A program made the position numbers and the translations under genes. From JBFLXN01 sp040755715 [NCBI: Candidatus Edwardsbacteria bacterium] (lineage in GTDB: Bacteria; Edwardsbacteria; AC1; JBFLXN01), in NCBI GenBank assembly GCA_040755715.1, contig JBFLXN010000023.1, positions 1 to 23,760 on the forward strand: a stretch of DNA of 23,760 nucleotides, written 5' to 3'. Within the stretch, counting starts at the first letter, position 1; each line of letters opens with the position of its first letter. The notes beneath the pieces were generated by a model that made no database searches, was not told the DNA's origin, and saw nothing but the letters and a program-made list of their open reading frames with translations. Shown here piece by piece: positions 354 to 23,760 of the stretch.

Positions 354-557
354 ATGCCACGAGGAAAAGTTAAGTGGTTCAATGAAAACAAAGGTTATGG
401 TTTCATTGAACGCGAAGACGGTAAGCCCGATGTCTTCGTGCACTTTTCCGCTATCAAGGAAGAAGGATTCAAGACTCTTGCCGAAGGGCAGGTTGTTGAG
501 TTCGATATCATTGAAGGCGAAAAAGGTCCACAAGCTGCCAATGTTGTTAAGGCGTAA
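354..557 (+). CDS. csp: Cold-shock domain protein (CspA family)
   Basis: Sixty-seven residues, the usual length for single-domain Csp proteins, forming one OB-fold that binds single-stranded RNA/DNA and acts in the cytoplasm as an RNA chaperone. Both nucleic-acid-binding motifs are present: RNP1 as KGYGFI (residues 13-18) and RNP2 as VFVHFSAI (27-34), with the typical start [11 protein letters not shown]. The ATG has Shine-Dalgarno AAGGAGG. The gene is monocistronic: own promoter at 144-172 and terminator-like hairpins at 560-577 and 624-662. Family assignment is secure. Whether it is cold-induced or constitutive cannot be read from the protein, though the long leader fits post-transcriptional control. 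Confidence 0.97.
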
Positions 558-2044: not shown

Positions 2045-2087
2045 AATACAAAGGGATGGAGTAGTTTCCATCCCTTTGTATTTTTTA
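2045..2087 (+). terminator. Rho-independent terminator
   Basis: A perfect 15-bp stem (ATACAAAGGGATGGA, 2046-2060, with 2067-2081) has a 6-nt loop and is followed directly by a T-tract (2081-2086). It lies about 65 nt after the stop of the outer-membrane protein gene. The A-rich 5' flank is too short to make it clearly bidirectional. Confidence 0.92.
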
Positions 2088-5517: not shown

Positions 5518-5608
5518 AAAATTAACAATTAGCCATGCAAAATGTTCAGCTTTACCTCTTCATTGATAATTGACAATTGATAATTACTAATTTTGCCATG
5601 TTAATTTT
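5518..5608. repeat. AT-rich nested fold-back in the 5469-5700 spacer
   Basis: The outer arms AAAATTAACA (5518-5527) and TGTTAATTTT (5599-5608) pair perfectly over 10 bp. Inner arms GCAAAAT (5537-5543) and ATTTTGC (5590-5596) pair over 7 bp. The centre holds two direct copies of ATTGATAATT separated by GAC. The spacer 5469-5700 holds no recognisable gene. The structure may act as a transcript end for the MFS operon, or be a small non-autonomous repeat. Confidence 0.65.
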
Positions 5609-6032: not shown

Positions 6033-6289
6033 CTGATATGGTGATATGCTGATATGTATAAGCAAGATCGCCAATGGGTTAGGATTACGAGGCTTGTATC
6101 GTCAATCTTGAGAAAGTTTGCACAGTTTTTTGGGTTTACATAGTTTCTTAGGTTATAAAACTCAAGAAACTCAATGAACTCAATAAACCCAATAAACTTA
6201 TTAACCGAAACGAGCTTCGTAACCGCGACCGTAGCCTATCCGCCATATGTAGTTTCCGTATCAGTATATAAGCATATTAGCATATCACC
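6033..6289. repeat. Nested fold-back built of tandem short repeats (5950-6344 spacer)
   Basis: This 395-nt gap holds no gene but is highly structured. Four pairs of arms nest around one centre: 6040-6056 with 6273-6289 (17 bp, one G.T); 6083-6094 with 6213-6224 (12 positions, one mismatch, one G.T); 6131-6138 with 6184-6191 (TGGGTTTA/TAAACCCA, perfect); 6142-6149 with 6164-6171 (AGTTTCTT/AAGAAACT, perfect). The outer left arm is part of three tandem copies of the 8-bp unit YTGATATG (6033-6056), and the right side has the inverted version. The inner right side is a 9-bp array of RAACTCAAT-type units, about 4.7 copies (6158-6200). It could be a MITE-like element or a structured leader. Confidence 0.75.
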
Positions 6290-9489: not shown

Positions 9490-10251
9490 TTGAGTGAGAT
9501 TTACGGTTCTATCAGCAAATATGATGAGACGCTGAGTTCAGCAAAGGAACCCCTTTTAATTTATCAGGAAATAAACGATAAAAAAGGTCAGGCAACAAGC
9601 CTCAACAATATCGGTGCTATGAATGATATTTTTGGTGACTATCCAAAGGCACTTGAATATTACACAAAATCATTAAAGATTAAAGAGGAAATCGGCGATA
9701 GAGAAGGTCAGGCAAGGAGCCTCAACAATATTGCCAGAGTCTATCTTGAACAGAAAGAATACAACAAATCAAGAGAGTATTTCACCAATGCTGAAAAGAT
9801 AGCAAAAGAGCTCAATTCAAAAGAGATTTTGCGAACGATTGCGGTTTCTTTTGGGGAACTGGAATTAGCTGAGGAACTCAAATCAAAAGTAGGAGAGGCA
9901 GAGGCACTACTTTTGCAAGCAAGAATCATGGTAGAACAGGCATCCTTGCCTGTTACACAGACAGGGATGTCTGTGCCATCATCTGTACAAGCATCCTTGC
10001 TTATTGATAAATTCAAAGAGGCGATTTTAATATTTGAACAATTAAAACAACCGTTTGAAATAGCAAAAGCGTATTACTATTATGCCCAATCATTGAAATT
10101 ACACACCCCTACTCCTCTTGATAGAGGGGAATATCTGCAAAAGGCAAAAGAGATTTTTGAAAAAATTGGTGCCAAGGAGTGGCTAAATAAAATAGTAAAT
10201 GGTAAAGGGTATTTAAGCAAGGCTCAGGAAGATATAGGCGGCGATTTTTAA
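9490..10251 (+). CDS. TPR-repeat protein, probably 5'-truncated remnant
   Basis: 253 residues if started at TTG 9490. There is no Shine-Dalgarno, and the frame opens in the middle of a TPR helix. Two clear tetratricopeptide units of the kinesin-light-chain/MalT-like 40-residue type follow: GQATSLNNIGAMNDIFGDYPKALEYYTKSLKIKEEIGDREGQARSLNNIARVYLEQKEY (about residues 34-95, read as two helical pairs). A degenerate TPR tail ends in AKEIFEKIGAKEWLNK. This closely resembles the C-terminal regions of large cyclase or kinase/TPR regulators such as the next gene. It may be the surviving 3' part of one, or a shortened scaffold protein. Two repeat-derived inserts are visible: LPVTQTGMSVPSS (~155-167) and TPTPLDRGE (~206-214). 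It may no longer be functional. Confidence 0.6.
   Translation: MSEIYGSISKYDETLSSAKEPLLIYQEINDKKGQATSLNNIGAMNDIFGDYPKALEYYTKSLKIKEEIGDREGQARSLNNIARVYLEQKEYNKSREYFTNAEKIAKELNSKEILRTIAVSFGELELAEELKSKVGEAEALLLQARIMVEQASLPVTQTGMSVPSSVQASLLIDKFKEAILIFEQLKQPFEIAKAYYYYAQSLKLHTPTPLDRGEYLQKAKEIFEKIGAKEWLNKIVNGKGYLSKAQEDIGGDF
9935..10002. repeat. Triple palindrome inside the TPR gene
   Basis: Three hairpins stand side by side: AACAGGCA-TCCT-TGCCTGTT (9935-9954), CACAGACA-GGGA-TGTCTGTG (9956-9975) and AAGCA-TCCT-TGCTT (9989-10002), all with perfect stems and 4-nt loops. Loops 1 and 3 are identical, and loop 2 (GGGA) is nearly complementary to them. The segment is translated in frame as ASLPVTQTGMSVPSSVQASL, unlike the surrounding TPR helices. 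That indicates a repeat element inserted into a coding region. Confidence 0.85.
10112..10129. repeat. Second small palindrome inside the TPR gene
   Basis: CTCCTCT-TGAT-AGAGGGG forms a 7-bp stem with one G.T pair. It is translated as TPTPLDRGE, a Pro-rich break between two TPR helices. The CCCCT-rich context resembles short palindromes common in bacterial spacers. Confidence 0.6.
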
Positions 10252-10262
10252 TCGTCATATTC

Positions 10263-10279
10263 GTGGCTTAAAAAGCCAC
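10263..10279. repeat. Palindrome between the TPR gene and the cyclase gene
   Basis: GTGGCTT-AAA-AAGCCAC is a perfect 7-bp hairpin starting 11 nt after the TPR stop codon. It is not followed by a T-tract, so it is not a standard terminator. It is more likely another REP-like unit. The following ~100 nt (to 10380) contain further short repeated words such as CAGATG and AATCCG. Confidence 0.6.
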
Positions 10280-10392
10280 CACTACAATAGAATTTCTGCT
10301 GTTGATTCAGACAGGCGAGGCAGATGCGGACAGATGTGTATCCATTTGAATCCGTCGTAATCCGCCTGCATCTATTTTTCCAAAGGAGAAAT

Positions 10393-13300
10393 ATGAAATG
10401 TCCGAAATGTAATTTTGAGAGTCCAGAAGGACAGAAATTTTGTGGTGAATGTGGAGCACCACTTGAAAGTATCAAGGCTCCGGAAGAACGTCGCTTAGTT
10501 ACCGTCCTCTTTGCTGACCTCTCGGGTTTTACAGCTCTTACTCAAGGATTAGACCCTGAAGAGGTTATGGGTGTGGCCAATATTTGTTTTGAATATTTGA
10601 ATAATTCAATCATTAAACAGAGTGGGACAATTCATAAATATGAAGGAGACTTAGTCATTGCCCTCTTTGGACTTCCCACCTCTCACGAAGATGACCCAGA
10701 AAGGGCAATCAAGTCGGCGTTAGAGATGATAAGAGTTATGTCGGAAATAAATGAAGCACTGAAATCAAGCTTAAAGAGGAAAGTTAACCTCGGATTACAT
10801 ATTGGTATCAATAGTGGCACGGTGGTTGCTGGTGCGGTTGGTTCTCAGGAGAAAAAGGAATACACCGTGATGGGTGAGGCAGTTAATCTCGCTTCAAGGT
10901 TAATGAATTCTGCAAAGCCTAACGAAATATTAGTATCTGAACCAGTCTTTAGAGCCTCAAGATATTTGTTTGATTATGAAGTACTATCACCACTTACTCT
11001 TAAAGGAATTGAAGAGCCAGTCAGGGTTTTTAAGCCACTGAAGATAAAAGATAAGCCTCAGTCAAAGCGAGGCATAAGAGGGCTCTATTCACCACTTGTC
11101 GGAAGGGACGAGGAATTTGAACGGCTCAAACAAACGGTAGAAAAATTACCTAAGGGAAAAGGCGGGGCAGTCTTCATCCTTGGTGATGCTGGTCTTGGCA
11201 AATCCCGCCTCTTGGAAGAACTCAAATCCTATCTTTCACATTCCGCATTCCACATTCCGCATTCCGCATTCCACATTCCGCAATCCGCAATCTCCCCTTC
11301 CCTCCTTCTCCCTGTCTCCTCTGTCCTTATTTTAGAGGGTCGCTGTCTCTCTTACGGTGAGAACATCACCTATTGGCCTTTCCTCCAGATTCTAAAGGAT
11401 ATACTCGGAATTGATGACAGTGATTCTTTAAAGGTAATTCAGGAAAAAATAGTGAAAAAGTGTCAAGAGCTTTTTTTAGAAAACTGGCAGGAGATTGTTC
11501 CATACATTGCCTATTTATTTTCCATTCGCTTCACCGATGAACTTGATGAGAGAGTAAAATATCTTGACGCCCAGGCTTTAAAGATTCAAATATTTTTAAG
11601 CCTCAGAAAATTACTGCTTGCCTTATCTAAAAAATATCCTCTCATTCTTGTAATTGAAGACTATCATTGGATTGACTCTGCCTCTTTAGAACTTTTAGAA
11701 TTCATCTTTGAGGGTTCTAATCATTCTGACTTGCGGGAAAGTATCATTGCGGAGGTCCCTTTATTATTCATCGGTCTTTCCCGAATTGAGAAGGACAAGG
11801 AATTCTGGAGGGTAAAGGAGCGAATTAAAGAGAAATTACAAGATAATTTTCTGGAAATTACTTTAAGCCCCCTGAATTTTCAAGCAAGCAATGCTCTGGT
11901 TCATAATCTTCTGAAAATTCTTGCTATACCTAAAGAATTGAAAGAAAAAATTTTGTCCAAAGCAGAAGGCAATCCATTCTTTCTTGAAGAAATCATTCGG
12001 AGTTTTATAGATTTAGGGGTCTTAATGTTTGACGGGAATACCTGGAAATTGGCAGGTAATGGCCAGCAATTAGCAAGTATAGAGATTCCTGACACGGTCC
12101 AAGCAGTAATTGCTACAAGATTGGACAGACTTGAGCAGGATGTAAAAGATGTCTTGCAGATGGCTTCAGTAATCGGAAGGAGTTTTTACAAGCGAGTATT
12201 AGAATATATCTCCCATATGGACAATTTAATGTTAGATTTATATCTGGCCGCTTTGGAAGAATTTGAGTTTATTAAAGAACAGAACCGAATTCCAGAATTG
12301 GAGTATATCTTCAAGCATCCGCTACTCCAGGAGGTAACCTATAATGGTCTTTTGAAGAGTAAGAGAAAAGCGCTTCACTTAAAAACTGCTGAATCTATAG
12401 AAAAAATGTTTCCAGACAGAATTTCAGACTTTTGTGAGTTACTTTCTGAACAGTACTATCGTGCTGAAGAGTGGACCAAGGCTTTTCAATATTCTGAAAT
12501 GCAGGCAAAGAAGGCAAAAGATGTCTACGCTAATAGAGAGGCAATCAATGCCTACGAGAGAGCTTTGGAAGTGGCGCCAAAAGCAAATAAACTTTCAGAG
12601 ACTCCGCGCCTTCTTTTAGCCCTTGGAGGAATCTTTACTTTACAAGGCGAAAACGATAAGGCCTTAGGTCTTTTACAAAGGGCACTGAAAGAAGCAATGG
12701 ATGAGAATATGCAATTTGAAATCTATTCACAGTTTGCCACACTTTACGAGAAGATGAGTAAATATGATGAATCACTCCGTTATCTCAAACTGGCTGAATT
12801 TTGTCTTTCTGACGGGATGTCTATTAAAAAGGTGAGGTTGCTCAGGGCAACTGCCTGGATTCAGTATCTGCGGGGTGAAATTCCTCAAGCCCTTAAAACA
12901 CTTGAAGAGGCCTCTTTTACCTTAAATCAATTGGAAGACGAAGATGAAAAAGAGAAAGACTTAATGAAGGCAAGGCTCTTAAGCCAGAAGGGCGGAATTT
13001 ACGCAGATTTGGGCGATACACAGAGGACAATTGACTTCTATCAGGAAAGTCTTGCTCTTTATAAAAAACACAGTGACCTTTTAGGAATATCTGTTATTTA
13101 CAACAATCTCGGCCATCATTTACAGGAAGTGGTCAAATTTTCACAATCAATTGAGATGTTAGAAAATGCTTTGCAGATTGATGAAAAAATAGGAAATTCC
13201 TTGGGCTACGCTATTGTCTGCAATAATCTGGGAGAAATATACTATTACCTTAATAACTTAGAGCGGTCCCAATTCTATTTCTCTGTCTACGCTGGAATTA

Positions 13301-13923
13301 ATGCAAAAATTCAGAATCGCTTAGGTGATGGATATGCGATGTTAGGATTTGGACGAATTCACCAGAAAAAAGGTGAAAATGAAGTCGCCTTAGAAATGTA
13401 TCATAAAGCCTTAGATATCTTTGATGAAGTAAAGTCTGAGAGAATGCACTATTTTGCCTTGACTGATCTCATAGATTTCCATATTCAGACGAATGAATTC
13501 TCAAAAGCAGAGTTGCTGATTCAGGAGGTGATTAGCTATGCTGAATCAAAAGAAATCAAGGCACTTCTGACTACAGCCTACACTTTGTTGGGGGAAATGG
13601 CTCTAAAGAGAGCTAAGAAAGGCGAAAAAGAATTTCCTCTGAGAATTGCACAAATAAATTTGGAGAAAGCACTTAAATTAGCTGAGGAAGGCAAGAATAT
13701 TGTTGACATCTTTGAGATAAAGAGAGAACTGTCAAAGGTTACCTTTTTTGAAGGCGATAGGCAAAGATTCAGAGCCGTCTTGGAAGAGACTCACTCAATT
13801 CTTAATTTGATTAAATCCGGGATAGAAGATGAGGTACTGAGAGAAAAATTCTTAAACAAACCGGAAATACAGGAATTTCTTGCCCTGCCGTGCGAGAGGG
13901 AAGAAAAAGAGGAAATAAAATAG
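10393..13923 (+). CDS. Zinc-ribbon / class III nucleotide cyclase / AAA ATPase / TPR regulator
   Basis: 1176 residues from ATG 10393, chosen for Shine-Dalgarno AAAGGAG 5-6 nt upstream; a frame extended back to 10324 passes through repeat sequence. Domain order: zinc ribbon with C3, C6, C17 and C20 (CPKC...CGEC); class III cyclase domain ~33-215 with metal-binding Asp42 (FADLSG) and Asp86 (YEGD), and the NxxxR pair N165/R169 (NLASR); AAA/STAND-type ATPase from ~235 with Walker A GDAGLGKS (264-271) and Walker B-like LILVIED (417-423); then many TPR units from ~700 to the end (for example GISVIYNNLGHHLQEV). Key catalytic positions are present, so cyclic nucleotide synthesis is plausible. The ATPase-TPR part resembles MalT/AfsR-like signalling ATPases. 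A low-complexity insert (~282-312, HSAFHIP repeats and SPSLLLPVSS) interrupts the ATPase domain after Walker A and is encoded by a 7-bp tandem repeat. Confidence 0.93.
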   Translation: MKCPKCNFESPEGQKFCGECGAPLESIKAPEERRLVTVLFADLSGFTALTQGLDPEEVMGVANICFEYLNNSIIKQSGTIHKYEGDLVIALFGLPTSHEDDPERAIKSALEMIRVMSEINEALKSSLKRKVNLGLHIGINSGTVVAGAVGSQEKKEYTVMGEAVNLASRLMNSAKPNEILVSEPVFRASRYLFDYEVLSPLTLKGIEEPVRVFKPLKIKDKPQSKRGIRGLYSPLVGRDEEFERLKQTVEKLPKGKGGAVFILGDAGLGKSRLLEELKSYLSHSAFHIPHSAFHIPQSAISPSLLLPVSSVLILEGRCLSYGENITYWPFLQILKDILGIDDSDSLKVIQEKIVKKCQELFLENWQEIVPYIAYLFSIRFTDELDERVKYLDAQALKIQIFLSLRKLLLALSKKYPLILVIEDYHWIDSASLELLEFIFEGSNHSDLRESIIAEVPLLFIGLSRIEKDKEFWRVKERIKEKLQDNFLEITLSPLNFQASNALVHNLLKILAIPKELKEKILSKAEGNPFFLEEIIRSFIDLGVLMFDGNTWKLAGNGQQLASIEIPDTVQAVIATRLDRLEQDVKDVLQMASVIGRSFYKRVLEYISHMDNLMLDLYLAALEEFEFIKEQNRIPELEYIFKHPLLQEVTYNGLLKSKRKALHLKTAESIEKMFPDRISDFCELLSEQYYRAEEWTKAFQYSEMQAKKAKDVYANREAINAYERALEVAPKANKLSETPRLLLALGGIFTLQGENDKALGLLQRALKEAMDENMQFEIYSQFATLYEKMSKYDESLRYLKLAEFCLSDGMSIKKVRLLRATAWIQYLRGEIPQALKTLEEASFTLNQLEDEDEKEKDLMKARLLSQKGGIYADLGDTQRTIDFYQESLALYKKHSDLLGISVIYNNLGHHLQEVVKFSQSIEMLENALQIDEKIGNSLGYAIVCNNLGEIYYYLNNLERSQFYFSVYAGINAKIQNRLGDGYAMLGFGRIHQKKGENEVALEMYHKALDIFDEVKSERMHYFALTDLIDFHIQTNEFSKAELLIQEVISYAESKEIKALLTTAYTLLGEMALKRAKKGEKEFPLRIAQINLEKALKLAEEGKNIVDIFEIKRELSKVTFFEGDRQRFRAVLEETHSILNLIKSGIEDEVLREKFLNKPEIQEFLALPCEREEKEEIK
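11239..11292. repeat. 7-bp tandem repeat inside the cyclase gene
   Basis: The unit CATTCCG (variants CATTCCA, CAATCCG) is repeated about 7.7 times without interruption. Because 7 is not a multiple of 3, three units make 21 nt and encode the heptapeptide HSAFHIP, which appears twice. A pyrimidine-rich run continues to about 11328 and is translated SPSLLLPVSS. The array lies shortly after the Walker A motif. Confidence 0.95.
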
Positions 13924-14153
13924 CGAAAAACAATCGCCGAGTAAAATCAAAAAAGAAACACAGCCTCGCATCATTGAGAGTGAGTCCTCTGGACGAAACA
14001 AGACATGCTTTATTTTCAATAAATCTCTTGGAAGATTTGATTCAAGATATGATATTCTACTACTCTATTGCAGAATGGCCACCGATAAGAAAGATTTACG
14101 AAAATATAGGTGATGTTGAAAAGACCTATAAATTACTAAGAGATATAGTTTAA
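13890..14153 (+). CDS. Small ORF overlapping the cyclase 3' end, function unknown
   Basis: Eighty-seven residues if started at GTG 13890, overlapping the cyclase gene by 34 nt. Alternative starts are TTG 13974 or GTG 13980, and none has a convincing Shine-Dalgarno. The N-terminal part is very basic (KRGNKIAKNNRRVKSKKK) and may be out-of-frame cyclase tail. The C-terminal 55 residues, HALFSINLLEDLIQDM followed by IRKIYENIGDVEKTYKLLRDIV, look like ordinary helical protein. I do not recognise it. It may be a small coupled partner of the cyclase or a fragment of an older gene. Confidence 0.4.
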   Translation: MREGRKRGNKIAKNNRRVKSKKKHSLASLRVSPLDETRHALFSINLLEDLIQDMIFYYSIAEWPPIRKIYENIGDVEKTYKLLRDIV

Positions 14154-14175
14154 ATGCTGCTCTAAGAGTGAAAAA

Positions 14176-17100
14176 ATGAAATTTCAGTTGAAGGGATTAC
14201 TAATAATAGGGGCGTTAAATTTAAGGCCTCTACTCTTGCCAATTTCTTTGTCAGCCGCCATTGACATTGATATTTATCCGCAATATGTGGCCTACGATGG
14301 CGTAGTGAGTTCAGGAGTATTGACAAAGGGGACACCATTTGCGGTTCATGTTGTTTGCACCGGCCTTTTACCTGACACTCTATACTACGGTCCCCGTCTC
14401 TATCTCAGGCGGGCTGACGGTGTGAGCATTCGGAAAGGACAACCTACTTGGAGTAACGGTGAGTGGAAGATTTCTACCTCTGCCTGGACATCATTTACCC
14501 CGTTCAGGACGGATGTAAGCGGGAATTGGCAAGGATGGGTCTTTGCCTGTGCTGAGACTTCTTATGCGAGAGGTTTAGATACACTACAAGTAGGGATACG
14601 TCTGGCAGGAGCTGATACCAATATCTACTCCAACAAATATTTTCCAATTACCTCTTTAGATATGTCGGCCTCCGGAGGTTGGCTGGAAGGGCATATTTAT
14701 AACGACCCAGGATTTACTAATAGAGCGGAAAACACCATCGTGCTTGCTTTCGGTGGAGGAAAATTATTAGGCTCCTGGATTACTGAAAATAATCATATTA
14801 GTGAAGGGCAGGATTCCACTAATACAGGTTATTTTAAATTAGCGGATTCTTTAATTACCATTGATTCTCTCCAATTTCGCAATTTGAATAATCAGATAGT
14901 TATATGTTATACAGAGACTTCACCCCCGTGGACTATTTTAGCAAATCAAATTATTTCTGTAGATAAAGTAGATACTATTCCGCCGGCGATAGTAAACAAT
15001 CTTTCTGTCTTGGTAAAAACTCTGAATTCTATAACTCTAACCTGGACAGCACCAGGCGATGATACTACCAGTGGTCAGGCTTCTACCTATGATTTGCGCT
15101 ATGCAACATTTCCTATTGATACAACCAACTGGAATTCATCCATTCAAGTAACTGATGAGTCAATTCCAAAAACTGTTGGCTTGCCAGAGACCTTGATTGT
15201 TACTGGCTTAGCACCGAAGACACTTTATTATTTTGCCTTAAAGACCGCAGATGAAGTATCTAACTGGTCTGGGCTCTCTAATATAGCCAGCGATTCTACT
15301 AGGTCTATCTTTCCCCTTTCAGAAATTCGCAAGAACGATGCTAATGGAGTTCCTTTATTACTCAATGACACGGTTTCAGTTCGGGGAGTTATTACAGTAG
15401 CCAATCAATTTGGTAAACTTTCTTTTTTGCAGGACTATTCGGGTTTTGGTGATACTCAGATGGGTTTGGCAGTTTATGATTCGGCAGTTACCGCTAATGT
15501 TAATATTGGTGATAGTGTTCAAATTTCAGGAGCAGTCACACAATACAACGGTCTGACAGAATTGAAGTCTGCTACAATAGATTCAATATTCAGTCACGGA
15601 CATTCTTTACAAATATCTCCAGCCACCTGCCTGGATATTACCAGTGAGGGTGGCGGTGGGGTGGAGAATTGGGAGGGAAAACTGGTACGCCTAAATAGAA
15701 TTCATGTTACTTCTGGGACTTTCCCTCCAGCAGGTTCTTCAGAAAATGTTACTATTTCAGATTCTACCGGTAGTTGTACGATGCGGATTGATTACCATAC
15801 TGATATTGACGGGACTTCCACACCTACTGATACTTTTGATATAGTTGGAATACTCAGCCAGTATGATGTGAGCAGTCCCTATACCAGCGGTTACCAATTG
15901 ATGCCCCGCTTTCTTTTGGACTTTGGAGGAAACGGTTCTGGCGTGACCCAAATTGCGCCAACGGCGTTCGGTCGTTCTAAACTGGAAAATGCAAAGATAA
16001 CGCTAAATGCCGGGATAAGCATCCTAACCGATGTAAGCATCACTATTCCTTACTTCTGGCAGTGGGATGGCCAGATGAGTAATATTACAGTGGCAGGTGG
16101 TTTCTATGGGGCGAATATTTCTATTAGTGGAAATGGAACAAGTAGTTCTCCTTATCTTATAACTCTTAATGGATGTGCAGTTACTCAAACTAATCCAGGA
16201 ATAATCACCATTTCCAATCTATATACGCCAGCCCAGATGGGTTGGTATCCTTTTATAATGAAAACTGCTGTATCTGGCAGTGCATTGAAAGAAATTGCTA
16301 AACAGCCTCTCGCTTTAGTAGTAATGCCAATTGCCGAAATTCAAGCGACTGGACCGGATGGCTATACTTCAGTTCTGCAAGGCAAAAGTGTTTTAATCGC
16401 TGGGGTGGTTACCGGCCCATCAACAGTATTTTCATCAGGCTCCAGTTCAATCAGTATGTTCATTCAAGATGCCAGTGGTGGAATTAACATTTATGGTTCT
16501 GGCGACAATCGTTGGACTTTGGGAATGAAATCTGCGGTAGCCGGTATTGTTCAGGAATATAATGGATTGACCGAGGTAAAGATTGTAAGTTCCGATTCAA
16601 TGTTTGATTTAGGCATGGATACAATCCCCCCCCCAAAGAAACTTCTCTATAATCAATTCATCACTGAAGGTATGGAAGGATGGCTGATTGAGGTCAGTGG
16701 TAGAGTTATAAGTGAACCTACTTTAACTGGTCCTGGCTGGAATATGGAGATAAGAAATGGCAATCCTGCTATTGCGATAAGAATCAATCAGAGCACTGGA
16801 ATAGACCCGGTCTGGATAAAAAAAGATGCTAATTTAAGAATAGTTGGTATTGTTGGTCAATATGACACTGAACCACCTCATGATTCAGGTTATCAACTAT
16901 TAGTTAGAGTTCCTCAAGACATTCAAGTTATCACCGAAAGTCTCCCTCCTTCAAGTTCTGTAATTATTGAAAAGATTTCCCCAAATCCATTTTCTGCTGA
17001 CCTTGGAGAAGTGGCGGAAATTTCAGTAAATGCTCCGATAGATAATCGGCTAACTTTAAGAATATTTGATTTGCAAGGTCGGTTGGTGAAGACTCTGATG

Positions 17101-17265
17101 AACAATGAATCAGGCGGACATCACCAAATTATCTGGGATGCAACGAATGAAAGGAGAGAAAAAGCAACAATTGGGATTTATGTTCTTCATCTGCAGGGCA
17201 CTTCTCCTTCAGGAGAAACTAAAAGTGTTACCAAGACCCTGGTGGTAGGAACACCTTTGAGGTAA
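14176..17265 (+). CDS. Secreted multidomain protein with T9SS-like C-terminal sorting domain
   Basis: 1029 residues. The N-terminal signal (about 1-27, LLIIGALNLRPLLLPISLSAA) is followed by an unassigned beta-rich region (28-265). A fibronectin type III domain covers ~268-375 (NSITLTWTAPGDD, TLYYFALKTADEVSNWSGLSN). Next come OB-like domains at ~383-583 (VSVRGVITVANQFGKLSFLQD; VQISGAVTQYNGLTEL), a beta-rich linker with an IPYFWQWDG stretch (~590-715), and a second OB-like pair (~717-914, VLIAGVVTGP and IVQEYNGLTEV). The tail ~935-1029 has SPNPFSADLG, LRIFDLQGRLVKTL, IIWDATN and GIYVLHLQG, the hallmarks of the FlgD-Ig/Por sorting domain that directs proteins through type 9 secretion to the surface. 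OB pairs of this kind often accompany secreted nucleases or surface proteins, but no catalytic domain is visible. The start has only a weak Shine-Dalgarno. A run of nine C residues lies at 16626-16634. Confidence 0.85.
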   Translation: MKFQLKGLLIIGALNLRPLLLPISLSAAIDIDIYPQYVAYDGVVSSGVLTKGTPFAVHVVCTGLLPDTLYYGPRLYLRRADGVSIRKGQPTWSNGEWKISTSAWTSFTPFRTDVSGNWQGWVFACAETSYARGLDTLQVGIRLAGADTNIYSNKYFPITSLDMSASGGWLEGHIYNDPGFTNRAENTIVLAFGGGKLLGSWITENNHISEGQDSTNTGYFKLADSLITIDSLQFRNLNNQIVICYTETSPPWTILANQIISVDKVDTIPPAIVNNLSVLVKTLNSITLTWTAPGDDTTSGQASTYDLRYATFPIDTTNWNSSIQVTDESIPKTVGLPETLIVTGLAPKTLYYFALKTADEVSNWSGLSNIASDSTRSIFPLSEIRKNDANGVPLLLNDTVSVRGVITVANQFGKLSFLQDYSGFGDTQMGLAVYDSAVTANVNIGDSVQISGAVTQYNGLTELKSATIDSIFSHGHSLQISPATCLDITSEGGGGVENWEGKLVRLNRIHVTSGTFPPAGSSENVTISDSTGSCTMRIDYHTDIDGTSTPTDTFDIVGILSQYDVSSPYTSGYQLMPRFLLDFGGNGSGVTQIAPTAFGRSKLENAKITLNAGISILTDVSITIPYFWQWDGQMSNITVAGGFYGANISISGNGTSSSPYLITLNGCAVTQTNPGIITISNLYTPAQMGWYPFIMKTAVSGSALKEIAKQPLALVVMPIAEIQATGPDGYTSVLQGKSVLIAGVVTGPSTVFSSGSSSISMFIQDASGGINIYGSGDNRWTLGMKSAVAGIVQEYNGLTEVKIVSSDSMFDLGMDTIPPPKKLLYNQFITEGMEGWLIEVSGRVISEPTLTGPGWNMEIRNGNPAIAIRINQSTGIDPVWIKKDANLRIVGIVGQYDTEPPHDSGYQLLVRVPQDIQVITESLPPSSSVIIEKISPNPFSADLGEVAEISVNAPIDNRLTLRIFDLQGRLVKTLMNNESGGHHQIIWDATNERREKATIGIYVLHLQGTSPSGETKSVTKTLVVGTPLR

Positions 17266-17292
17266 TTACACACTATCCTTGGTTGTTTGAAA

Positions 17293-19647
17293 ATGGCATT
17301 TCCCCTCGCAATTTTTGTAATGGGCTTCACCGCCTTGGTTGGACAACTGGTGCTCATTCGGGAACTCTTGGTCGTCTTCTATGGCAATGAATTCACCATC
17401 GGTGCAATTTTAGGCACCTGGCTTCTCTTTGTCGCCCTGGGCTCCTGGGGATTAGAAAAGATAATAAGAAAGTGGAAATTAGATTTGGGTTCGCTTCTAC
17501 TCATCCAGATTCTCCTCACCATCATATTGCCATTCCAGATTTTTCTTATCCGAGCAATTAAGAGTATCTTGCATTTACCACAGGGAGAACTCGTCGGTTT
17601 CTTCCCTACCATTTTATCTTCACTCCTTATTTTAGCACCACTCTGTCTCCTCTTAGGTCTGGAATTTACCCTTTTAGCGAAGATTTGTTCTTCCTACCTC
17701 TCCCTTTTTCCCTCCCCCACTGGGGGAGGGAAAGGGTGGGGTCCAAACCGCTTTCCACTAGGTCAGGTCTATGTAATAGAATCACTTGGTTCATTGATTG
17801 GTGGACTGGGCTTCACCTTCATCCTCATACATTATCTTCAGCCCCTCCAGATTGTCTTCATCCTAGGGATGCTGAATTTAATCAGTGGCCTGGCGCTTCT
17901 CCCCTATATGAAGAACCGTCTTTTAAAAAGAATTGAAGGCGGACTACTTGTTTCCCTTCTGATTTTTTGGGGTTTTGTCTTCTTTTCCAAAGGCGCCTCT
18001 TTTCTTCAAGAAAAATCTCTCCGATGGCTCTGGGGAAATGAGTTTGTGGAGAGCAAAGATTCTGGTTATAGCAACATAGTCGTTACCCGACAGGGAGAAC
18101 AGTTTACCCTATTTGAAAATGGATTGCTTTCTTTTTCCACTCAGGATTTTCTCACCAATGAACAAATCGCTCACCTGCCACTTTTACAACATCCCAATCC
18201 GGAAAATGTTCTCCTAATCGGAGGAGGAATCGCCGGAGTTCTTGCCGAAATCCTTAAACATCCTTCAGTAAAAGAGATTGACTATGTCCAACTGGATCCT
18301 CAATTGGTTTCTATTGGTCAAAAATATCTCTCTCAAGTGGATTTAATGGCACTCAACGATAAAAGAGTGAAGGTGAATCTCTGTGATGCTCGGTTATTCA
18401 TTAAAAAGACTAACAAAAAATACGATGTCATCATTCTCAACCTCCTTCATCCATTTACGGCTCAGATTAATCGCTGTTATACCCTAGAATTTTTCAGAGA
18501 AATAAAAAGATGTCTTGATGAATCAGGCATTTTCTCTCTGGGCATCATTTGTGCCGAGAACTATATCAACCAGGAGGTTAAAAACCTGGCCGGGTGTATC
18601 TATAAGACCACAAGACAGGTTTTTTCTAAAACACTCATTGTGCCCGGAGATTATATGTTCATCTTCGCTACAGATAAGAACGACCTCTTGACTTTTGATG
18701 TGCCGCTCCTTCAAAACCGGTTTTATCAGCGTTCCATCACGACTTCCATTTTCACACCATATCATCTAATTAACAAATTCAATCTCTACCGAATGAACTA
18801 TACTCTCAGGATTTTGTCTTCCGGAGATAAGGGGATAAAGGTTAATCGTGACTTCTTGCCAATTGCGGTTTGGTATGACACTCTTTTATGGGCAAGTCTA
18901 TTTTCTTTAAAATTCTCCAGAGTGCTTAGTTTTCTAGGTTCCTTTGGCTGGAGTTGGCTAATAATTTCATTCATTCTAATTTTATTATTGCTAACCCCAC
19001 CCTTAATCCATCACCTAGAGAAGAGGGTGAGAGAAGGGTTAAGAGGGACAAAGAGAGAGGTGAGAAGCCAGATGTTTCTCACTACTACTATTGCTGTAGT
19101 GGGATTTGTGGGGATGGTATCTGAGGTCATCGTTTTGCTTGCTTTCCAGATGTTATATGGATATGTTTATCAGGAGCTCGGGTTGATTATGGCGATGTTT
19201 ATGGGAGGTCTAGCTTTTGGTAGCTGGTTAACCACTAAGGCGAGTTATCAACTCAAGACAAGTCACTTAAAATGGCTATTAATTCTTTTGGTCTTATATC
19301 CGCCTTTTCTCTTTTTAATCCTTACTTTCTTATCAAGCACAACATTAAGGGGAATTTTAATTCACTTGATTTTCAGTCTTCTCCTCGGTATTGTTGGGTT
19401 ATTAGATGGGGCTAGTTTTCCCTTGGTGGCCAAGCTTCATCTGGGCCATTCAAGAGAGGTTTCTCGGACTGCGGGAATGCTCTACGGAGCTGACCTGTTG
19501 GGGGCGTTTGTCGGTGCTATTCTTTCTGGTGCAATCTTTTTACCCACCTTGGGACTTTTGGGAACCTGTCTTCTCTCATCTATTCTTTCTCTAATGGCTT
19601 TCATATCTGTAACTTTAATGAGGAATTCAAAGGAGCTATTTTATTAG
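17293..19647 (+). CDS. Membrane-embedded spermidine-synthase-like protein (fused MFS-type segments)
   Basis: 784 residues from ATG 17293 (TTG 17287 would add two). The N-terminal half has several membrane helices, beginning FPLAIFVMGFTALVGQLVLIRELLVVFYGNEFTIG, a signature of membrane proteins fused to spermine/spermidine synthase domains. The central soluble domain (~250-490) is a Rossmann methyltransferase-like fold: VLLIGGGIAGVLAEIL (~306-321), the acidic LDPQ (~332-335), and YDVIILNLLHP. The canonical aminopropyltransferase DxxDP-type motif reads NLLHPF, so polyamine synthesis is doubtful. A second set of membrane helices follows (~535-784, GFVGMVSEVIVLLAFQMLYG). A palindromic repeat encodes FPSPTGGGKGWG in a loop at ~138-150. 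It ends tail-to-tail with the C25 protease gene, overlapping by 12 nt. The substrate is unknown. Confidence 0.85.
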   Translation: MAFPLAIFVMGFTALVGQLVLIRELLVVFYGNEFTIGAILGTWLLFVALGSWGLEKIIRKWKLDLGSLLLIQILLTIILPFQIFLIRAIKSILHLPQGELVGFFPTILSSLLILAPLCLLLGLEFTLLAKICSSYLSLFPSPTGGGKGWGPNRFPLGQVYVIESLGSLIGGLGFTFILIHYLQPLQIVFILGMLNLISGLALLPYMKNRLLKRIEGGLLVSLLIFWGFVFFSKGASFLQEKSLRWLWGNEFVESKDSGYSNIVVTRQGEQFTLFENGLLSFSTQDFLTNEQIAHLPLLQHPNPENVLLIGGGIAGVLAEILKHPSVKEIDYVQLDPQLVSIGQKYLSQVDLMALNDKRVKVNLCDARLFIKKTNKKYDVIILNLLHPFTAQINRCYTLEFFREIKRCLDESGIFSLGIICAENYINQEVKNLAGCIYKTTRQVFSKTLIVPGDYMFIFATDKNDLLTFDVPLLQNRFYQRSITTSIFTPYHLINKFNLYRMNYTLRILSSGDKGIKVNRDFLPIAVWYDTLLWASLFSLKFSRVLSFLGSFGWSWLIISFILILLLLTPPLIHHLEKRVREGLRGTKREVRSQMFLTTTIAVVGFVGMVSEVIVLLAFQMLYGYVYQELGLIMAMFMGGLAFGSWLTTKASYQLKTSHLKWLLILLVLYPPFLFLILTFLSSTTLRGILIHLIFSLLLGIVGLLDGASFPLVAKLHLGHSREVSRTAGMLYGADLLGAFVGAILSGAIFLPTLGLLGTCLLSSILSLMAFISVTLMRNSKELFY
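17707..17733. repeat. Perfect 13-bp palindrome inside the synthase-like gene
   Basis: TTTCCCTCCCCCA (17707-17719) and its exact reverse complement (17721-17733) flank a single C. It is translated as part of SLFPSPTGGGKGWGP, a Pro/Gly-rich loop between two membrane helices. The G-run/C-run palindrome type is common between genes of many bacteria and looks out of place in a coding region. Confidence 0.88.
18990..19050. repeat. Possible degenerate palindromic insert in the synthase-like gene
   Basis: A CCC/ACCCTTAA-rich left part and a GGGTTAAGAGGG-rich right part surround CATCACC and GAGGGTGAGAG. The pairing is imperfect and needs bulges. It encodes a charged linker (TPPLIHHLEKRVREGLRG) between the soluble domain and the last membrane segments. 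It resembles the repeat family of 17707-17733, but the evidence is weak. Confidence 0.3.
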
Positions 19648-22600
19648 AATCATTTTCTTCGTATCCGCAAAATCTCCCGCAGTCAAGCGATAGAAATAGA
19701 CACCTGCCGAAACCTTCCTCCCAGCCTCGTCCTTACCATCCCAACTAACTCTATAAACTCCTGAACTCATAAACTCATTAACTAAAGTCTTCACTAATTG
19801 TCCGGCCACATTATAGATTTTTAAAGTGGTATGGATTGTCACCGGTAACTGATAACTGATAACTGATAACCGACTGAATGGATTAGGATAACTGCTGCCT
19901 AAAGCATAAACCTTTGGCATGGTAGGTTTTACTGGCGGCTCCTCGGTAATACCAGTGAGACTTGGAATTTGGGTGTACCTGATGGCTTTCTGGCTATAGA
20001 ATCCCAAGACATTTCCGCTGTTGCCAGGTGTGCCGTCATAGAAAATATCCAACCCGATGGTGCCCGCTGCATTCTGAATCCCTATACCACTTTGACTTCG
20101 GTCTTGCCATTGTTTGTACTGAACTACTACATCATATCCAGCACAACCGCCAACATCACTGCCAGTGGAATCATAGAAGATAAACTCAAATGTGTTATAG
20201 TAGAGTGAAGTTTCATAGTAGGGAACAGCATCATATTCAACAATGAATCTCTGATTGGCCACATCGTTCATATAGCCCACCCAACCGCTGGCACTTGGGT
20301 CAATATCATCCCACATTCCGAATACCGCAGGTCTGGGAACATTTGTAGCATTACTAGGTAGATGCACATTGTTATAGTAATAGGCTGGAGGCGCGACATT
20401 ACCCAAACCTATCCAGCCGTTGCCACAAACCGAGAGTTGATTATATGTTACACCATACCAGGTGAAATTGAATGGAAGACTAACCACAACCGCGCCATCA
20501 TCACCAGGAAGTATCTGTGTTCCTCCTGCACCACGGATTTCAACCCACTGATAAACAGGAGCCCGACTCGCACCATCGCTATCCTCTACCGCATAGTAAT
20601 TCCCAGCATCTGGTCCTGTGGGAGCATATCCTATAGTTTCCTCCCAGGTAGAGGTTCTGGCGGGTACTCCATCGGCATTCATTACCAGCGTAAAGGTCAC
20701 ATTTGTGCCAACTAGAATATTCCCAACACTCACCACAAATGAATCACTGCTATTGGTCCCACTGGTTCCATAATTTATTGTTCCAAAGGTAGCCACGGAG
20801 TCCGTCACCTGAACCAAAGGCTCACTGCAACGCAGAATGCCCTGCACATTGTAGCCATTGCCTAAGCCAGTATTGTTCACTGTGGTAATTATCTTTGCGG
20901 TCTCGTTAGGGTCCAACCGGCCGTTGCCATCAATAGTGCGGCTGGCATAAACTAACACCGGTGCACCTACTGTGAGAGAAAATGTTGAGACCCAGCTAGA
21001 GTCATTGTCATAACATAGCAGACTACACGGTATCACTACTCCGTTGGTGCAGGCCCCGGCTATTGTGAGGTCATATCCTACTGAATATTGTGCGGAGTCG
21101 CCAGCGTTCAAAGTGCCATAGATGTAGAGACTATCAGCACCGGGAGTCATCCAAGAACTGCGGCTGACAAATTTCCCGGTTACACTACCACTGGTAGCCG
21201 CTATCCCATAGTTCTTAATCCAGGTCGGCATACGAATGATTTCTCCTGGATTAATTATTCCATCGTTGTTGCCACCAGAAGCAGGGTCTGAAATGCTGTG
21301 TTTGAGATGAGCCACATAAGGACCGCCAGACTGAACAACCAGTGCATAACCTTCATACGGCAAGTGATTTTTAGCTGTGGCAGTAACGAATAGGGTATCC
21401 ACATTGGGTGGATTGACATTCAAGGTAACCTCACCCAAAGCATTCGTATTGCCATAGGTATAAACGCTGCCATCCTTAAACATAGCGCACACCAAAGCAT
21501 CTGAGATAGGATTATTAGTAGCTTTGTCTATTACTGTGACTGTGAAATTGCTAGGCCCGACAGGCACCGTTGGATTGTGTGTCACCAGGAGAGTTTCAGG
21601 TTCTGTAGTCCACAACGGCAGTTCAGGGTCACCAAAAAGATTTAATTCATACAAACACCATCTCATCATATCGTACTGATTACTGGAGTCAGCGTACGGC
21701 ACCCAGGCGCTCTTGGTTGAAGCCAGGACTTCACCCAACTTATAGAGCCCCTCGCCAAAGATGCGATGATAGAAGGTAGTATCTATCATCTCTGAAGGGC
21801 CTATAGCAGGTGGACTACCCCAGCCATAGCGGGAATTCATCATCACACCAACACACCCTCCGTCAACCCGGTTGATAATGTGTTCGGCAAAGCAATCCCC
21901 GGCAGATACCTCATCCATAGCGCCAGTAAAACAAGCGATGGAAATGGCTATGCCTTGATTAGTTCCATTGGTAGCAGCATCGGCATTGCTGGAAGTATAA
22001 TATGGGGGAAAGGCTCCACCATTATAATAGTAAATTCCGGTCTCATTTCCATGTCCTACCCAGTGACCCATTCCCCGGCCCTGATTCATAGAGTTCACCA
22101 TTGCTGCTTGCGAGAGTGTGCCATTTCGCTCAAACAGAGAATCATCCAACCAATCACTAGGGGTCATGGCGGCAATTGCCCGCTGGACAGGTCGCTCTTC
22201 GTAACTGCTCCATAAGATAGCAGTCGGAAGAAGCATCTTTTTTAAGTAGCCGGTCGGCGGATTCTTTTCGTATGTCATCACCTTGCTCACAAAATTTTGG
22301 GCATCAGCCACAGTTAGAACTGGCGTCCGCCCAACAAAGACATCGGGATACATATTGACATTGTCAGCCAACTCGCCGTAAGTATAGTTACCATTGGCAT
22401 CCCAAGTGCCATCTAAATCCGAATAATAGAGGTCGGATGGTATTAAATCTTCATCAGGATAATAGCCAACACCACTAGTGATATAATAGGCGTGTCTGCT
22501 CGGAATTAGATTTTGCCCGGAGTTTAAGTCATCACCCTGGCCACCTAATAGCACATAGACTGTGCCCCAAGTGGTTCTGGCATCTTTAATGAAGTTGCGA

Positions 22601-23433
22601 ATCTTCTCCGTCAAATCATAACCAGTGTAATTCGCATTTATCCAGCTTACCCCTACTACTGTATCTCTGATACCTTTCTTGGTTTTCCATTTTGCCAACC
22701 GTGTAAAAACGGTGTCCAAATTTGCTGCGCCAGAAATGGTTACATAGTGATAATTTCCAAGAGGTAATAAGGTAGCTCTACTCCCATTTGCGACTCTGGG
22801 GGCAAATATGGAGACATCGTTAGGATTAACCACAAAAGCCCTCACCACTTCTCCAAAGACACTCTTCTGATACTGAGTGGGAATATTATCTGAGACGGAA
22901 TTCTCCGTATATTTCACCCGGTAGGCTATTCTGCTGGTAAAATATAATTTGCCCTTTACCGGATTGTAGCGTAGCGGAAACAACTCAATATGTCCTATGC
23001 GGTATCCACACATACTTCCGGTAGACAACGCCTTTATCTGAATGCTCGGATAGACCTTATCCTGGCTGTAAATCAAGGGGTCAGGGAATACTGGCTCTAG
23101 AACAAAAGTCTTCCCCGGCATCGGCAAAGGCACGGGCTTTTGACACGGAATAAGATTGTATGTTCCCAGAAGTTCGCTGGTTTCATCTGATAACAAAGTC
23201 ACTTCCGTAACTGCGGCTCCGGCCGGAATGACTAAAGCCTGAACGACACGAGGCAGTCTTGGTTTGCCCGGTTCGGTATTTGCGGGATAACCAGAAAGTT
23301 CTACGACATCATAAGTCTCTGATTTAGTGACTCTCAGGTCTTGCGATGAAAAGTTCACCGTCTGCACCAATTCACCCGCTGACAAGGTGCCCCCTAAGAG
23401 CATTAATGCCAGCATTGACACTATTCTCTTCAT
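19636..23433 (-). CDS. Secreted C25 (gingipain-family) cysteine protease with T9SS-like sorting tail
   Basis: 1265 residues from ATG at 23433 on the minus strand, with Shine-Dalgarno GGGAGG 5 nt upstream. The signal peptide is residues 1-19 (MKRIVSMLALMLLGGTLSA). A propeptide-like beta region follows (~20-215). The peptidase C25 domain (~225-605) carries the expected dyad: H461 in GHWVGHGNETG and C501 in AISIACFTGAMD, 40 residues apart. Supporting signs are VYVLLGGQGDD, IPSDLYYSDLDG, VFVGRTPV and LNLFGDPELPLW. Then an Ig-like domain (~615-700), two CARDB-like units with DGNNDGIINPGE and DGNGRLDPNE, and a beta-rich domain (~960-1165, LPFNFTWYGVTYNQLSVCGNGWIGLG). The last 87 residues (1179-1265) are a sorting domain: SYPNPFS, LKIYNVAGQLVKTLV, VSWDGKDEAGRKVSAGVYFYR, TKKMILIK. 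It is expected to be exported and act extracellularly or on the cell surface; specificity (Arg, Lys or other) cannot be stated. Confidence 0.95.
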   Translation of the reverse strand: MKRIVSMLALMLLGGTLSAGELVQTVNFSSQDLRVTKSETYDVVELSGYPANTEPGKPRLPRVVQALVIPAGAAVTEVTLLSDETSELLGTYNLIPCQKPVPLPMPGKTFVLEPVFPDPLIYSQDKVYPSIQIKALSTGSMCGYRIGHIELFPLRYNPVKGKLYFTSRIAYRVKYTENSVSDNIPTQYQKSVFGEVVRAFVVNPNDVSIFAPRVANGSRATLLPLGNYHYVTISGAANLDTVFTRLAKWKTKKGIRDTVVGVSWINANYTGYDLTEKIRNFIKDARTTWGTVYVLLGGQGDDLNSGQNLIPSRHAYYITSGVGYYPDEDLIPSDLYYSDLDGTWDANGNYTYGELADNVNMYPDVFVGRTPVLTVADAQNFVSKVMTYEKNPPTGYLKKMLLPTAILWSSYEERPVQRAIAAMTPSDWLDDSLFERNGTLSQAAMVNSMNQGRGMGHWVGHGNETGIYYYNGGAFPPYYTSSNADAATNGTNQGIAISIACFTGAMDEVSAGDCFAEHIINRVDGGCVGVMMNSRYGWGSPPAIGPSEMIDTTFYHRIFGEGLYKLGEVLASTKSAWVPYADSSNQYDMMRWCLYELNLFGDPELPLWTTEPETLLVTHNPTVPVGPSNFTVTVIDKATNNPISDALVCAMFKDGSVYTYGNTNALGEVTLNVNPPNVDTLFVTATAKNHLPYEGYALVVQSGGPYVAHLKHSISDPASGGNNDGIINPGEIIRMPTWIKNYGIAATSGSVTGKFVSRSSWMTPGADSLYIYGTLNAGDSAQYSVGYDLTIAGACTNGVVIPCSLLCYDNDSSWVSTFSLTVGAPVLVYASRTIDGNGRLDPNETAKIITTVNNTGLGNGYNVQGILRCSEPLVQVTDSVATFGTINYGTSGTNSSDSFVVSVGNILVGTNVTFTLVMNADGVPARTSTWEETIGYAPTGPDAGNYYAVEDSDGASRAPVYQWVEIRGAGGTQILPGDDGAVVVSLPFNFTWYGVTYNQLSVCGNGWIGLGNVAPPAYYYNNVHLPSNATNVPRPAVFGMWDDIDPSASGWVGYMNDVANQRFIVEYDAVPYYETSLYYNTFEFIFYDSTGSDVGGCAGYDVVVQYKQWQDRSQSGIGIQNAAGTIGLDIFYDGTPGNSGNVLGFYSQKAIRYTQIPSLTGITEEPPVKPTMPKVYALGSSYPNPFSRLSVISYQLPVTIHTTLKIYNVAGQLVKTLVNEFMSSGVYRVSWDGKDEAGRKVSAGVYFYRLTAGDFADTKKMILIK
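19846..19870. repeat. 7-bp tandem repeat inside the sorting domain of the C25 protease
   Basis: The unit TAACTGA is repeated 3.6 times (plus strand). On the coding strand it gives TCAGTTA units translated as SVISYQLPV in the sorting domain. The domain keeps its usual length here, and the I-x-Y-x-L-P pattern matches what this strand normally carries (for example TTIRYSLPEAT in typical domains, from memory). So it has replaced or evolved within the strand rather than adding residues. Confidence 0.85.
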
Positions 23434-23636: not shown

Positions 23637-23760
23637 TTGCCGTATCGGAATTTCAATCCGACCAAGGCGGACCACGGAAACACGGAATTCAAGAAACACA
23701 GAATAAAATCTAGTTTTTCATTGCCTTTCCGTGCTTCCGTGGTTAAATATCTTGCCGTAT
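23634..23760. repeat. Inverted and direct repeats at the right edge
   Basis: Arms 23671-23685 and 23729-23743 (left arm ACCACGGAAACACGG) pair over 15 positions with one mismatch. The pair is flanked by an exact 12-nt direct repeat ATCTTGCCGTAT at 23634-23645 and 23749-23760. The word TTCCGTGGTTAAAT also occurs at 6299-6312, showing the same repeat type upstream of another gene. A small non-autonomous element with a long target duplication is possible but unproven. Confidence 0.65.

What the first reader, a model, noticed from the sequence alone, without database searches (positions are those of the whole stretch)
9935..19870. Short palindromic and tandem repeats have colonised coding regions in frame
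Seen: at least four genes contain repeat DNA translated into atypical peptides: TPR protein (triple palindrome; TPTPLDRGE), cyclase (HSAFHIP array), synthase-like protein (FPSPTGGG palindrome) and C25 protease (SVISYQLPV array). Similar repeat types fill the spacers. Known: Rickettsia palindromic elements insert in frame in proteins. Inferred: this lineage may have several independent repeat families that insert into permissive loops, a protein-diversifying process on a broad scale.
Basis: partly seen in the sequence, partly recalled or inferred. Interest (0 to 1): 0.62.

Follow-up and report, generated by a model that had tools for sequence, protein, structure and literature searches.

The report
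Small DNA repeats inside protein genes
Short repeat DNAs of kinds already described in bacteria (hairpin repeats and seven-base tandem repeats) sit in frame inside two, probably three, proteins here, while a fourth suspected case is ordinary protein sequence whose codons happen to read like a repeat.

Summary
The repeats are real and beyond chance, but the four cases differ. Cyclase/AAA gene: a CATTCCG heptamer array gives 25-26 residues that 4 of 4 full-length homologues lack. Synthase-like gene: the loop holding a 13-bp-stem palindrome is 35 aa, against 21-30 in 14 of 15 homologues and 51 in one. TPR gene: a palindrome pair and a hairpin overlap breaks between modelled helices, but homologue alignments do not prove insertion. 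The pair is a GTAG-tagged REP dimer; near-identical palindromes occur in 2 of 44 genomes of another group, 8 of 11 loci clear of ORFs. Tandem tracts are about five times denser outside genes (small numbers). REPs and heptamer arrays inside genes are in print (PMC3733652, PMC4679880, PMC2700814). Verdict: new members of known repeat kinds, probably tolerated in permissive loops; no evidence of an adaptive diversifying system. Two repeat-like tracts in the C25 tail that add no length stay unexplained. The window's own genome is not held, so copy numbers are unknown.

The parts
9931..9981 (+). GTAG-tagged REP dimer (two palindromes, 8-bp stems, 4-nt loops, opposite orientation) inside the TPR gene; with the next part it encodes about EQASLPVTQTGMSVPSSVQASLL
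   Evidence: Fold (z -6.2); left arm 21/24 and right arm 21/24 identical to the elements of genomes G008/G009
9987..10005 (+). third, degenerate palindrome of the same type (ACAAGCATCCTTGCTTATT)
   Evidence: 84% identical direct copy of 9936-9954
10106..10129 (+). CCCCTACTCCTCTTGATAGAGGGG hairpin encoding TPTPLDRGE (residues 206-214)
   Evidence: sequence, place and residues; AlphaFold single-sequence model: break only at 206-208, rest modelled as start of the next helix, block 201-210 pLDDT 59
9490..10251 (+). TPR gene carrying three palindromes and one hairpin
   Evidence: ORF; TPR_12 E 4.5e-20
11238..11295 (+). CATTCCG/CATTCCA heptamer array; the extra peptide is about AFHIPHSAFHIPQSAISPSLLLPVS (about 11247-11321)
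   Evidence: gap of 25 residues in three and 26 in one of 4 homologues
10393..13923 (+). adenylate/guanylate cyclase - AAA_16 - TPR gene (start taken at 10393, not 10324)
   Evidence: Pfam Guanylate_cyc 3.6e-24, AAA_16 2.3e-22
10588..10617 (+). period-8 tract in the cyclase domain; whether it adds residues was not checked
17700..17741 (+). CCCTCCCCCACTGGGGGAGGG palindrome followed by AAAGGGTGGGG, encoding about LFPSPTGGGKGWG
   Evidence: 13-bp stem, z -3.3; same core in 14 stretches of viral contigs, GGGTGGGG within 45 nt in 4 of 14
17287..19647 (+). membrane spermidine-synthase-like gene; the palindrome lies in a variable-length loop before GxVYxxExxGS
   Evidence: Spermine_synth 2.9e-34; loop lengths
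19846..19870 (-). TAACTGA x3.6 tract in the C25 protease tail; native FlgD-type strand LSVISYQLP, not an insertion
   Evidence: 6 of 200,000 synonymous recodings have as long a period-7 run
19754..19785 (-). period-8 tract (AAACTCAT) in the same tail, encoding EFMSSGVYRV; length within one residue of homologues
19636..23433 (-). C25 peptidase with FlgD_ig / Por_Secre_tail C-terminal domain
   Evidence: Peptidase_C25 2.3e-58, FlgD_ig 2.4e-10
5562..5592 (.). spacer period-7 tract ATTGATAATTGACA
6155..6200 (.). spacer period-9 tract AAACTCAATGAACTCAAT; resembles the C25 tract 19754-19785
6259..6287 (.). spacer period-8 tract

Best explanation
The window comes from a bacterium whose spacers hold 7-9 bp tandem tracts and inverted pairs. 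Repeats of the same general kinds have landed, or grown, inside two genes for certain and a third probably. They survived because the unit has no stop codon in the frame used and because the site is a permissive loop: after the Walker-A helix of the AAA domain, in a variable loop between membrane segments, and at turns between TPR helices. The TPR element is a GTAG-tagged REP dimer of the kind thought to be copied by REP-associated tyrosine transposases (inferred here). The cyclase insert is a heptamer array that presumably grew by slippage or copying (inferred); since 7 and 3 share no factor, such an array encodes the same heptapeptide in all three frames. The fourth case, in the C25 protease, is native protein sequence. 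The process is neutral colonisation filtered by selection, not a diversity-generating system. Shown: tracts beyond chance; extra residues in the cyclase and a longer loop in the synthase than in most homologues; related repeats in other genomes and viral contigs. Inferred: mobilisation, neutrality, and the TPR insertion.
For: Cyclase: 25-26 residues absent in 4 of 4 full-length homologues. Synthase: loop 35 aa against 21-30 in 14 of 15 homologues, 51 in one. TPR: single-sequence AlphaFold model (mean pLDDT 80.2) has a non-helical break at 153-163 within the REP-encoded stretch (block pLDDT 55 and 65) and a break at 206-208 at the start of TPTPLDRGE (59). REP: pattern ACAGGCATCYTTGCCTGT with up to 1 mismatch in 2 of 44 genomes, 11 places, 0 in reversed-pattern controls; by my reading, 8 of 11 are preceded by GTAG and 6 of 11 paired with CACAGACAGGAATGTCTG; 8 of 11 loci are clear of ORFs. 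Heptamers: TAACTGA arrays in 5 of 44 genomes, 15 matches (some overlapping), 0 controls, and in 30 viral stretches; CATTCCG arrays in 27 viral stretches against 3 for the reversed pattern. Stop logic: arrays of the stop-bearing TAACTGA lie outside ORFs in 29 of 31; arrays of the stop-free CATTCCG lie inside ORFs of 150 aa or more in 17 of 32, in shorter ORFs in 2, at ORF ends in 10, outside in 3.
Against: The window's genome is not held, so copy number, intragenic share and a RAYT gene of this organism are unknown. Y1_Tnp genes exist in G008 and G009 (2 and 3 matches), but none of the 12 fetched Y1_Tnp loci (3 of those 5 among them) shows these REPs in its flanks. The right REP arm ends in CCAT where CTAC is expected. 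Of 11 REP loci, two lie in short ORFs (70 and 121 aa) and L140 overlaps long open frames. Homologues are distant (24-26% for the cyclase; 31-38% for the synthase). TPR alignments are too noisy, and most of TPTPLDRGE is modelled as helix. CATTCCG arrays: 0 of 392 genomes of the phylum of G001, 2 of 44 in the phylum of G002, each with 1 mismatch. Synthase palindrome: 0 of 44. Plasmids: no match for REP or heptamer query. The ORFs are unverified and many may be spurious.
Confidence: 0.75

Rival explanations
1. A protein-diversifying process: the lineage gains from repeat insertions that vary loop sequence.
For: Two shown and one likely in-frame insert of unrelated families within about 8 kb.
Against: Tandem tracts are about five times denser outside genes, on small numbers; relatives of the REP lie mostly between genes; the inserts lie in loops where drift is enough; no recurrent or variable insertion at one site was seen in the few homologues at hand.
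Confidence: 0.07
2. The peptides are ordinary variable-loop protein sequence, and the DNA regularity is coincidence or low complexity.
For: True for the C25 tail at the protein level; the synthase loop is variable in homologues (21-51 aa); the TPR insertion is unproven.
Against: DNA regularity far exceeds dinucleotide shuffles and synonymous recoding; the REP and TAACTGA DNA lies mostly outside predicted ORFs elsewhere.
Confidence: 0.1
3. The in-gene repeats are functional nucleic-acid sites (translation or mRNA-stability elements) that happen to be translated, as proposed in print for REPs and for TAACTGA repeats.
For: Published proposals: REPs as RNA elements (PMC3733652), TAACTGA as translational control sites near start codons (PMC4679880).
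Against: The window copies lie inside genes or near the 3' end, not just upstream of start codons; the cyclase and synthase sites are not conserved in homologues.
Confidence: 0.06

Closest known systems
GTAG-tagged REPs and REP dimers, including intragenic ones (Di Nocera et al. 2013, PMC3733652; abstract, passages and sections 5 and 15 seen)
   Same: 8-bp stem, short loop, unpaired GTAG at one end, opposite-oriented pair, 20-30 residues encoded when inside an ORF, mostly intergenic in relatives
   Different: I could not compare with the 24 published consensus sequences (figures not held); the right arm lacks CTAC; copy number in the window's genome unknown
TAACTGA direct repeats (MacGregor 2015, PMC4679880; abstract and sections 10, 15, 24 read)
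   Same: identical heptamer TAACTGA; reverse orientation read as LSVISYQ, as the paper notes for ORFs
   Different: the paper's in-ORF copies are mostly at protein ends or in hypothetical proteins; here the tract coincides with a conserved strand and adds no length
Heptanucleotide elements of Geobacter metallireducens found between and within genes (PMC2700814; passages only)
   Different: another unit (GGACCGG), one species
REPINs / RAYT system (PMC3116915, start of abstract in the search listing only; PMC6006769, passages)
   Same: paired inverted REPs; RAYT-like Y1_Tnp genes in 7 of 8 genomes searched
   Different: no RAYT shown in the window's genome; no Y1_Tnp locus with this REP in its flanks among the 12 fetched
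Rickettsia palindromic elements (from passages of PMC3733652 and recall)
   Same: palindromic DNA read in frame in unrelated genes
   Different: RPE-1 are longer elements of one family (recalled); here several short unrelated families, some of them tandem arrays

Membership tests
GTAG REP dimer (element 9931-9981) | perfect stem of about 5-13 bp with a short loop | tested here: met
   two 8-bp stems, 4-nt loops
GTAG REP dimer (element 9931-9981) | unpaired GTAG tag outside the stem | tested here: inconclusive
   left arm GTAG at 9931 present and unpaired; right arm shows CCAT where CTAC is expected
GTAG REP dimer (element 9931-9981) | two units in opposite orientation | tested here: met
GTAG REP dimer (element 9931-9981) | high copy number in the host genome | not testable with these tools
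   own genome not held; in another genome, G008, 9 places
GTAG REP dimer (element 9931-9981) | mostly extragenic | tested here: met
   in G008/G009, 8 of 11 loci clear of predicted ORFs of 60 aa or more; L132 and L141 in ORFs of 70 and 121 aa; L140 overlaps long open frames. The window copy itself is intragenic
GTAG REP dimer (element 9931-9981) | associated RAYT transposase | tested here: inconclusive
   Y1_Tnp genes in G008 and G009, but none of the 12 fetched loci has these REPs in its flanks; 2 of the 3 G009 matches were not fetched
TAACTGA heptamer repeats | direct repeats of exactly TAACTGA, two or more copies | tested here: met
   3.6 exact copies at 19846-19870
TAACTGA heptamer repeats | intergenic, often just before a start codon | tested here: not met
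   inside the C25 gene
Insertion of a repeat in the C25 protease | extra residues relative to homologues | tested here: not met
   strand aligned without extra residues in the four loci that cover it (L158, L159, L160, L162); L157 and L161 start after it; the window's own second tail is 4 residues longer there
Insertion of a repeat in the cyclase | extra residues relative to homologues | tested here: met
   gap of 25-26 residues in 4 of 4 homologues
Insertion of a repeat in the synthase-like gene | extra residues relative to homologues | tested here: met
   loop 35 aa against 21-30 in 14 of 15 and 51 in one; the loop is variable in any case
Insertion of repeats in the TPR gene | extra residues relative to homologues | tested here: inconclusive
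   homologue alignments noisy; model breaks at 153-163 and 206-208 overlap both stretches
Rickettsia palindromic elements | one longer palindromic family inserted in frame in many genes | tested here: not met
   elements here are short and of several unrelated sequences, each unit at one place in the window; the defining feature is recalled

The most novel reading that the evidence does not exclude
Repeat DNA can overwrite coding sequence in place, without changing length. Two tracts in the conserved FlgD-type tail of the C25 protease read as spacer repeats (TAACTGA heptamers; AAACTCAT octamers that align with spacer 6155-6200) although the protein keeps its native motif and, within a residue, its length. 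If so, template-copying or conversion from dispersed arrays rewrites codons, and native motifs such as ISYQL, whose codons can already have period 7, act as landing or nucleation sites for arrays that recur in unrelated bacteria.
Probability: 0.13. Interest if true: 0.62.

Novelty: new member of a known kind. Interest (0 to 1): 0.34.

Why it matters
It documents several repeat families inside genes of one uncultured genome within about 8 kb, shows with homologues which of four claimed cases are insertions, and shows that one REP family recurs almost unchanged in other genomes and that the same heptamer units recur in other genomes and viral contigs. It is also a warning for annotation: peptides such as HSAFHIP or SVISYQL can be repeat readings, but the second can equally be a real conserved motif.

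Tried and rejected
Plasmid collection for the REP dimer and the heptamer: no match. Long exact patterns for the REP pair and the synthase palindrome in viral contigs: 0. The short REP core gave 7 stretches in two groups of near-identical flanks (L110, L111, L114, L115; L112, L113) and one single (L116), none with the window's second arm beside it, so viral contigs give no support for the REP. CATTCCG array in the phylum of G001: 0 of 392. Synthase palindrome in the phylum of G002: 0 of 44. REP beside a Y1_Tnp gene: none in 12 loci. TPR insertion by homologue alignment: too noisy. AlphaFold of the AAA piece: mean pLDDT 41, unusable. The first synthase alignment had wrong frames for 2 of 15 rows (L042, L044), redone with all 15. 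Without L175 I count ten period-7 tracts, 7 in spacers, 1 at an edge, 2 in ORFs; one search also counted a run of N in L164, left out. Rejected: membership in Rickettsia palindromic elements (no single long family).
Full report
What was claimed. Four genes between 9935 and 19870 were said to hold repeat DNA read in frame, with similar repeats in the spacers, pointing to a broad protein-diversifying process.

What is there. The ORFs and repeats are at the stated coordinates. Pfam names the genes: a TPR protein, a cyclase-AAA_16-TPR protein, a spermidine-synthase-like membrane protein and a C25 peptidase with a FlgD_ig / Por_Secre_tail end. The window's genome is not held, so counts in the organism itself were impossible. 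The organism is not identified: the one scan of named genomes, with the synthase, found two distant relatives (26% and 31%). Por_Secre_tail is met in only 1 of 43 genomes of the phylum of G002, the genome of Ca. Auribacter fodinae, so that phylum is probably not the window's own; this is inference, and 'another group' carries that doubt.

Chance. The longest exact period-7 run is 18 matches (maximum 10 in 200 dinucleotide shuffles) and the best 44-position score 39 (maximum 27). There are seven tracts of period 7, 8 or 9 and none of period 5, 6 or 10-13; 100 shuffles give 0.01 on average. With proteins fixed and codons resampled, 0 of 300 rounds reach the four coding tracts of period 7 or 8. 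The synthase hairpin has a 13-bp stem, above the maximum of 11 in 40 shuffles, while the total count of hairpins is ordinary (7 against mean 4.1, maximum 10). The palindrome pair in the TPR gene folds far better than shuffles (z -6.2).

Cyclase. The site is the loop after the Walker-A helix (named by motif). The array is CATTCCG/CATTCCA. Since 7 and 3 share no factor, a heptamer array reads as one heptapeptide in every frame; CATTCCG has no stop on either strand.

Synthase-like protein. In 15 homologues (31-38% identity) the loop before the GxVYxxE motif is 21-30 residues in 14 and 51 in one; in the window it is 35 and holds FPSPTGGGKGWG. The palindrome core CCCTCCCCCNCTGGGGGAGGG occurs in 14 stretches of viral contigs, followed within 45 nt by GGGTGGGG, as in the window, in 4 of 14, and in 0 of 44 genomes of the phylum of G002.

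TPR protein. Homologue alignments are too noisy to prove insertion. A single-sequence AlphaFold model (mean pLDDT 80) has a non-helical segment 153-163 inside the REP-encoded stretch (blocks 55 and 65) and a break at 206-208 where TPTPLDRGE (206-214) begins, the rest of it being modelled as helix (block 201-210: 59). The pair starts with GTAG at 9931. In 2 of 44 genomes (G008 nine places, G009 two; reversed controls 0) nearly the same palindrome occurs. By my reading, 8 of 11 places are preceded by GTAG and 6 of 11 are paired with CACAGACAGGAATGTCTG; the window's arms are 21/24 (left) and 21/24 (right) identical to these. Eight of 11 loci are clear of ORFs of 60 aa or more, two lie in ORFs of 70 and 121 aa, and L140 overlaps long open frames. 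This is a GTAG-type REP dimer. Y1_Tnp genes, the family of REP-associated transposases, are in 7 of 8 genomes searched, G008 and G009 included, but none of the 12 fetched loci shows the REP in its flanks, so the link to a transposase is inferred.

C25 protease. SVISYQLP aligns with the first strand of the FlgD-type domain in the four loci whose alignment covers it (L158, L159, L160, L162) without extra residues, and the window's own second tail is 4 residues longer there; codons differ in the three loci read (L158, L159, L162). What remains odd is codon regularity: 6 of 200,000 synonymous recodings give as long a period-7 run and 1 of 50,000 match the TTATCAG unit as well. A second tract, 19754-19785, arises in 49 of 20,000 recodings, and it aligns with spacer tract 6155-6200 as well as only 1 of 5000 recodings do; its length is within one residue of homologues. 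I picked these after seeing them, so the figures overstate the case. A period-8 tract at 10588-10617 in the cyclase domain was not tested for extra residues.

Spacers and other genomes. Period 7-9 tracts: 4 in the 20,871 bases of 11 CDS, 3 in the rest, so coding sequence is the poorer site, on small numbers. Each of eight in-gene unit patterns occurs at one place only in the window, so the spacers hold the same kinds of repeat, not the same repeats. In viral contigs TAACTGA arrays (the unit contains stops) are outside ORFs in 29 of 31; CATTCCG arrays are inside ORFs of 150 aa or more in 17 of 32, inside shorter ones in 2, at ORF ends in 10 and outside in 3, though such ORFs are unverified. TAACTGA arrays occur in 5 of 44 genomes with 0 in controls; CATTCCG arrays in 2 of 44, each with one mismatch, 0 of 392 in the phylum of G001, and in 27 viral stretches against 3 for the reversed pattern.

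Literature. GTAG and CGTC REPs, including dimers encoding 20-30 residues inside ORFs and argued to be tolerated in linkers or loops, are described in PMC3733652 (abstract, passages, sections 5 and 15). TAACTGA repeats, including in ORFs as LSVISYQ, are in PMC4679880 (abstract and sections 10, 15, 24). Heptanucleotide elements between and within genes are in PMC2700814 (passages). A full-text search for five heptapeptide words found only PMC4679880, and there no HSAFRIP-type word. A search that required three of five terms around CATTCCG found nothing on that array; a paper holding the heptamer alone would have been missed.

Judgement. New members of known repeat kinds: insertion shown in two of four genes, likely in a third, refuted in the fourth; mechanism of entry inferred; no evidence for an adaptive diversifying system.

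Noticed in passing
   Followed up: no
window 19754-19785 and 6155-6200: A coding tract of the C25 tail and a spacer tract align as well as only 1 of 5000 synonymous recodings do.
   Followed up: partly
window 354-557 with leader 65-350: Cold-shock-type small ORF (named by eye) with a 25-nt direct repeat upstream, 65-89 and 98-122.
   Followed up: no
window 2045-2082: Perfect 16-bp-stem hairpin just after the gene 803-1978, probably a terminator.
   Followed up: no
window 23671-23687 and 23727-23743: Inverted ACCACGGAAACACGGAA / TTCCGTGCTTCCGTGGT pair in the spacer before the C25 gene.
   Followed up: no
   Followed up: no
Why seven is preferred is unexplained.
   Followed up: partly
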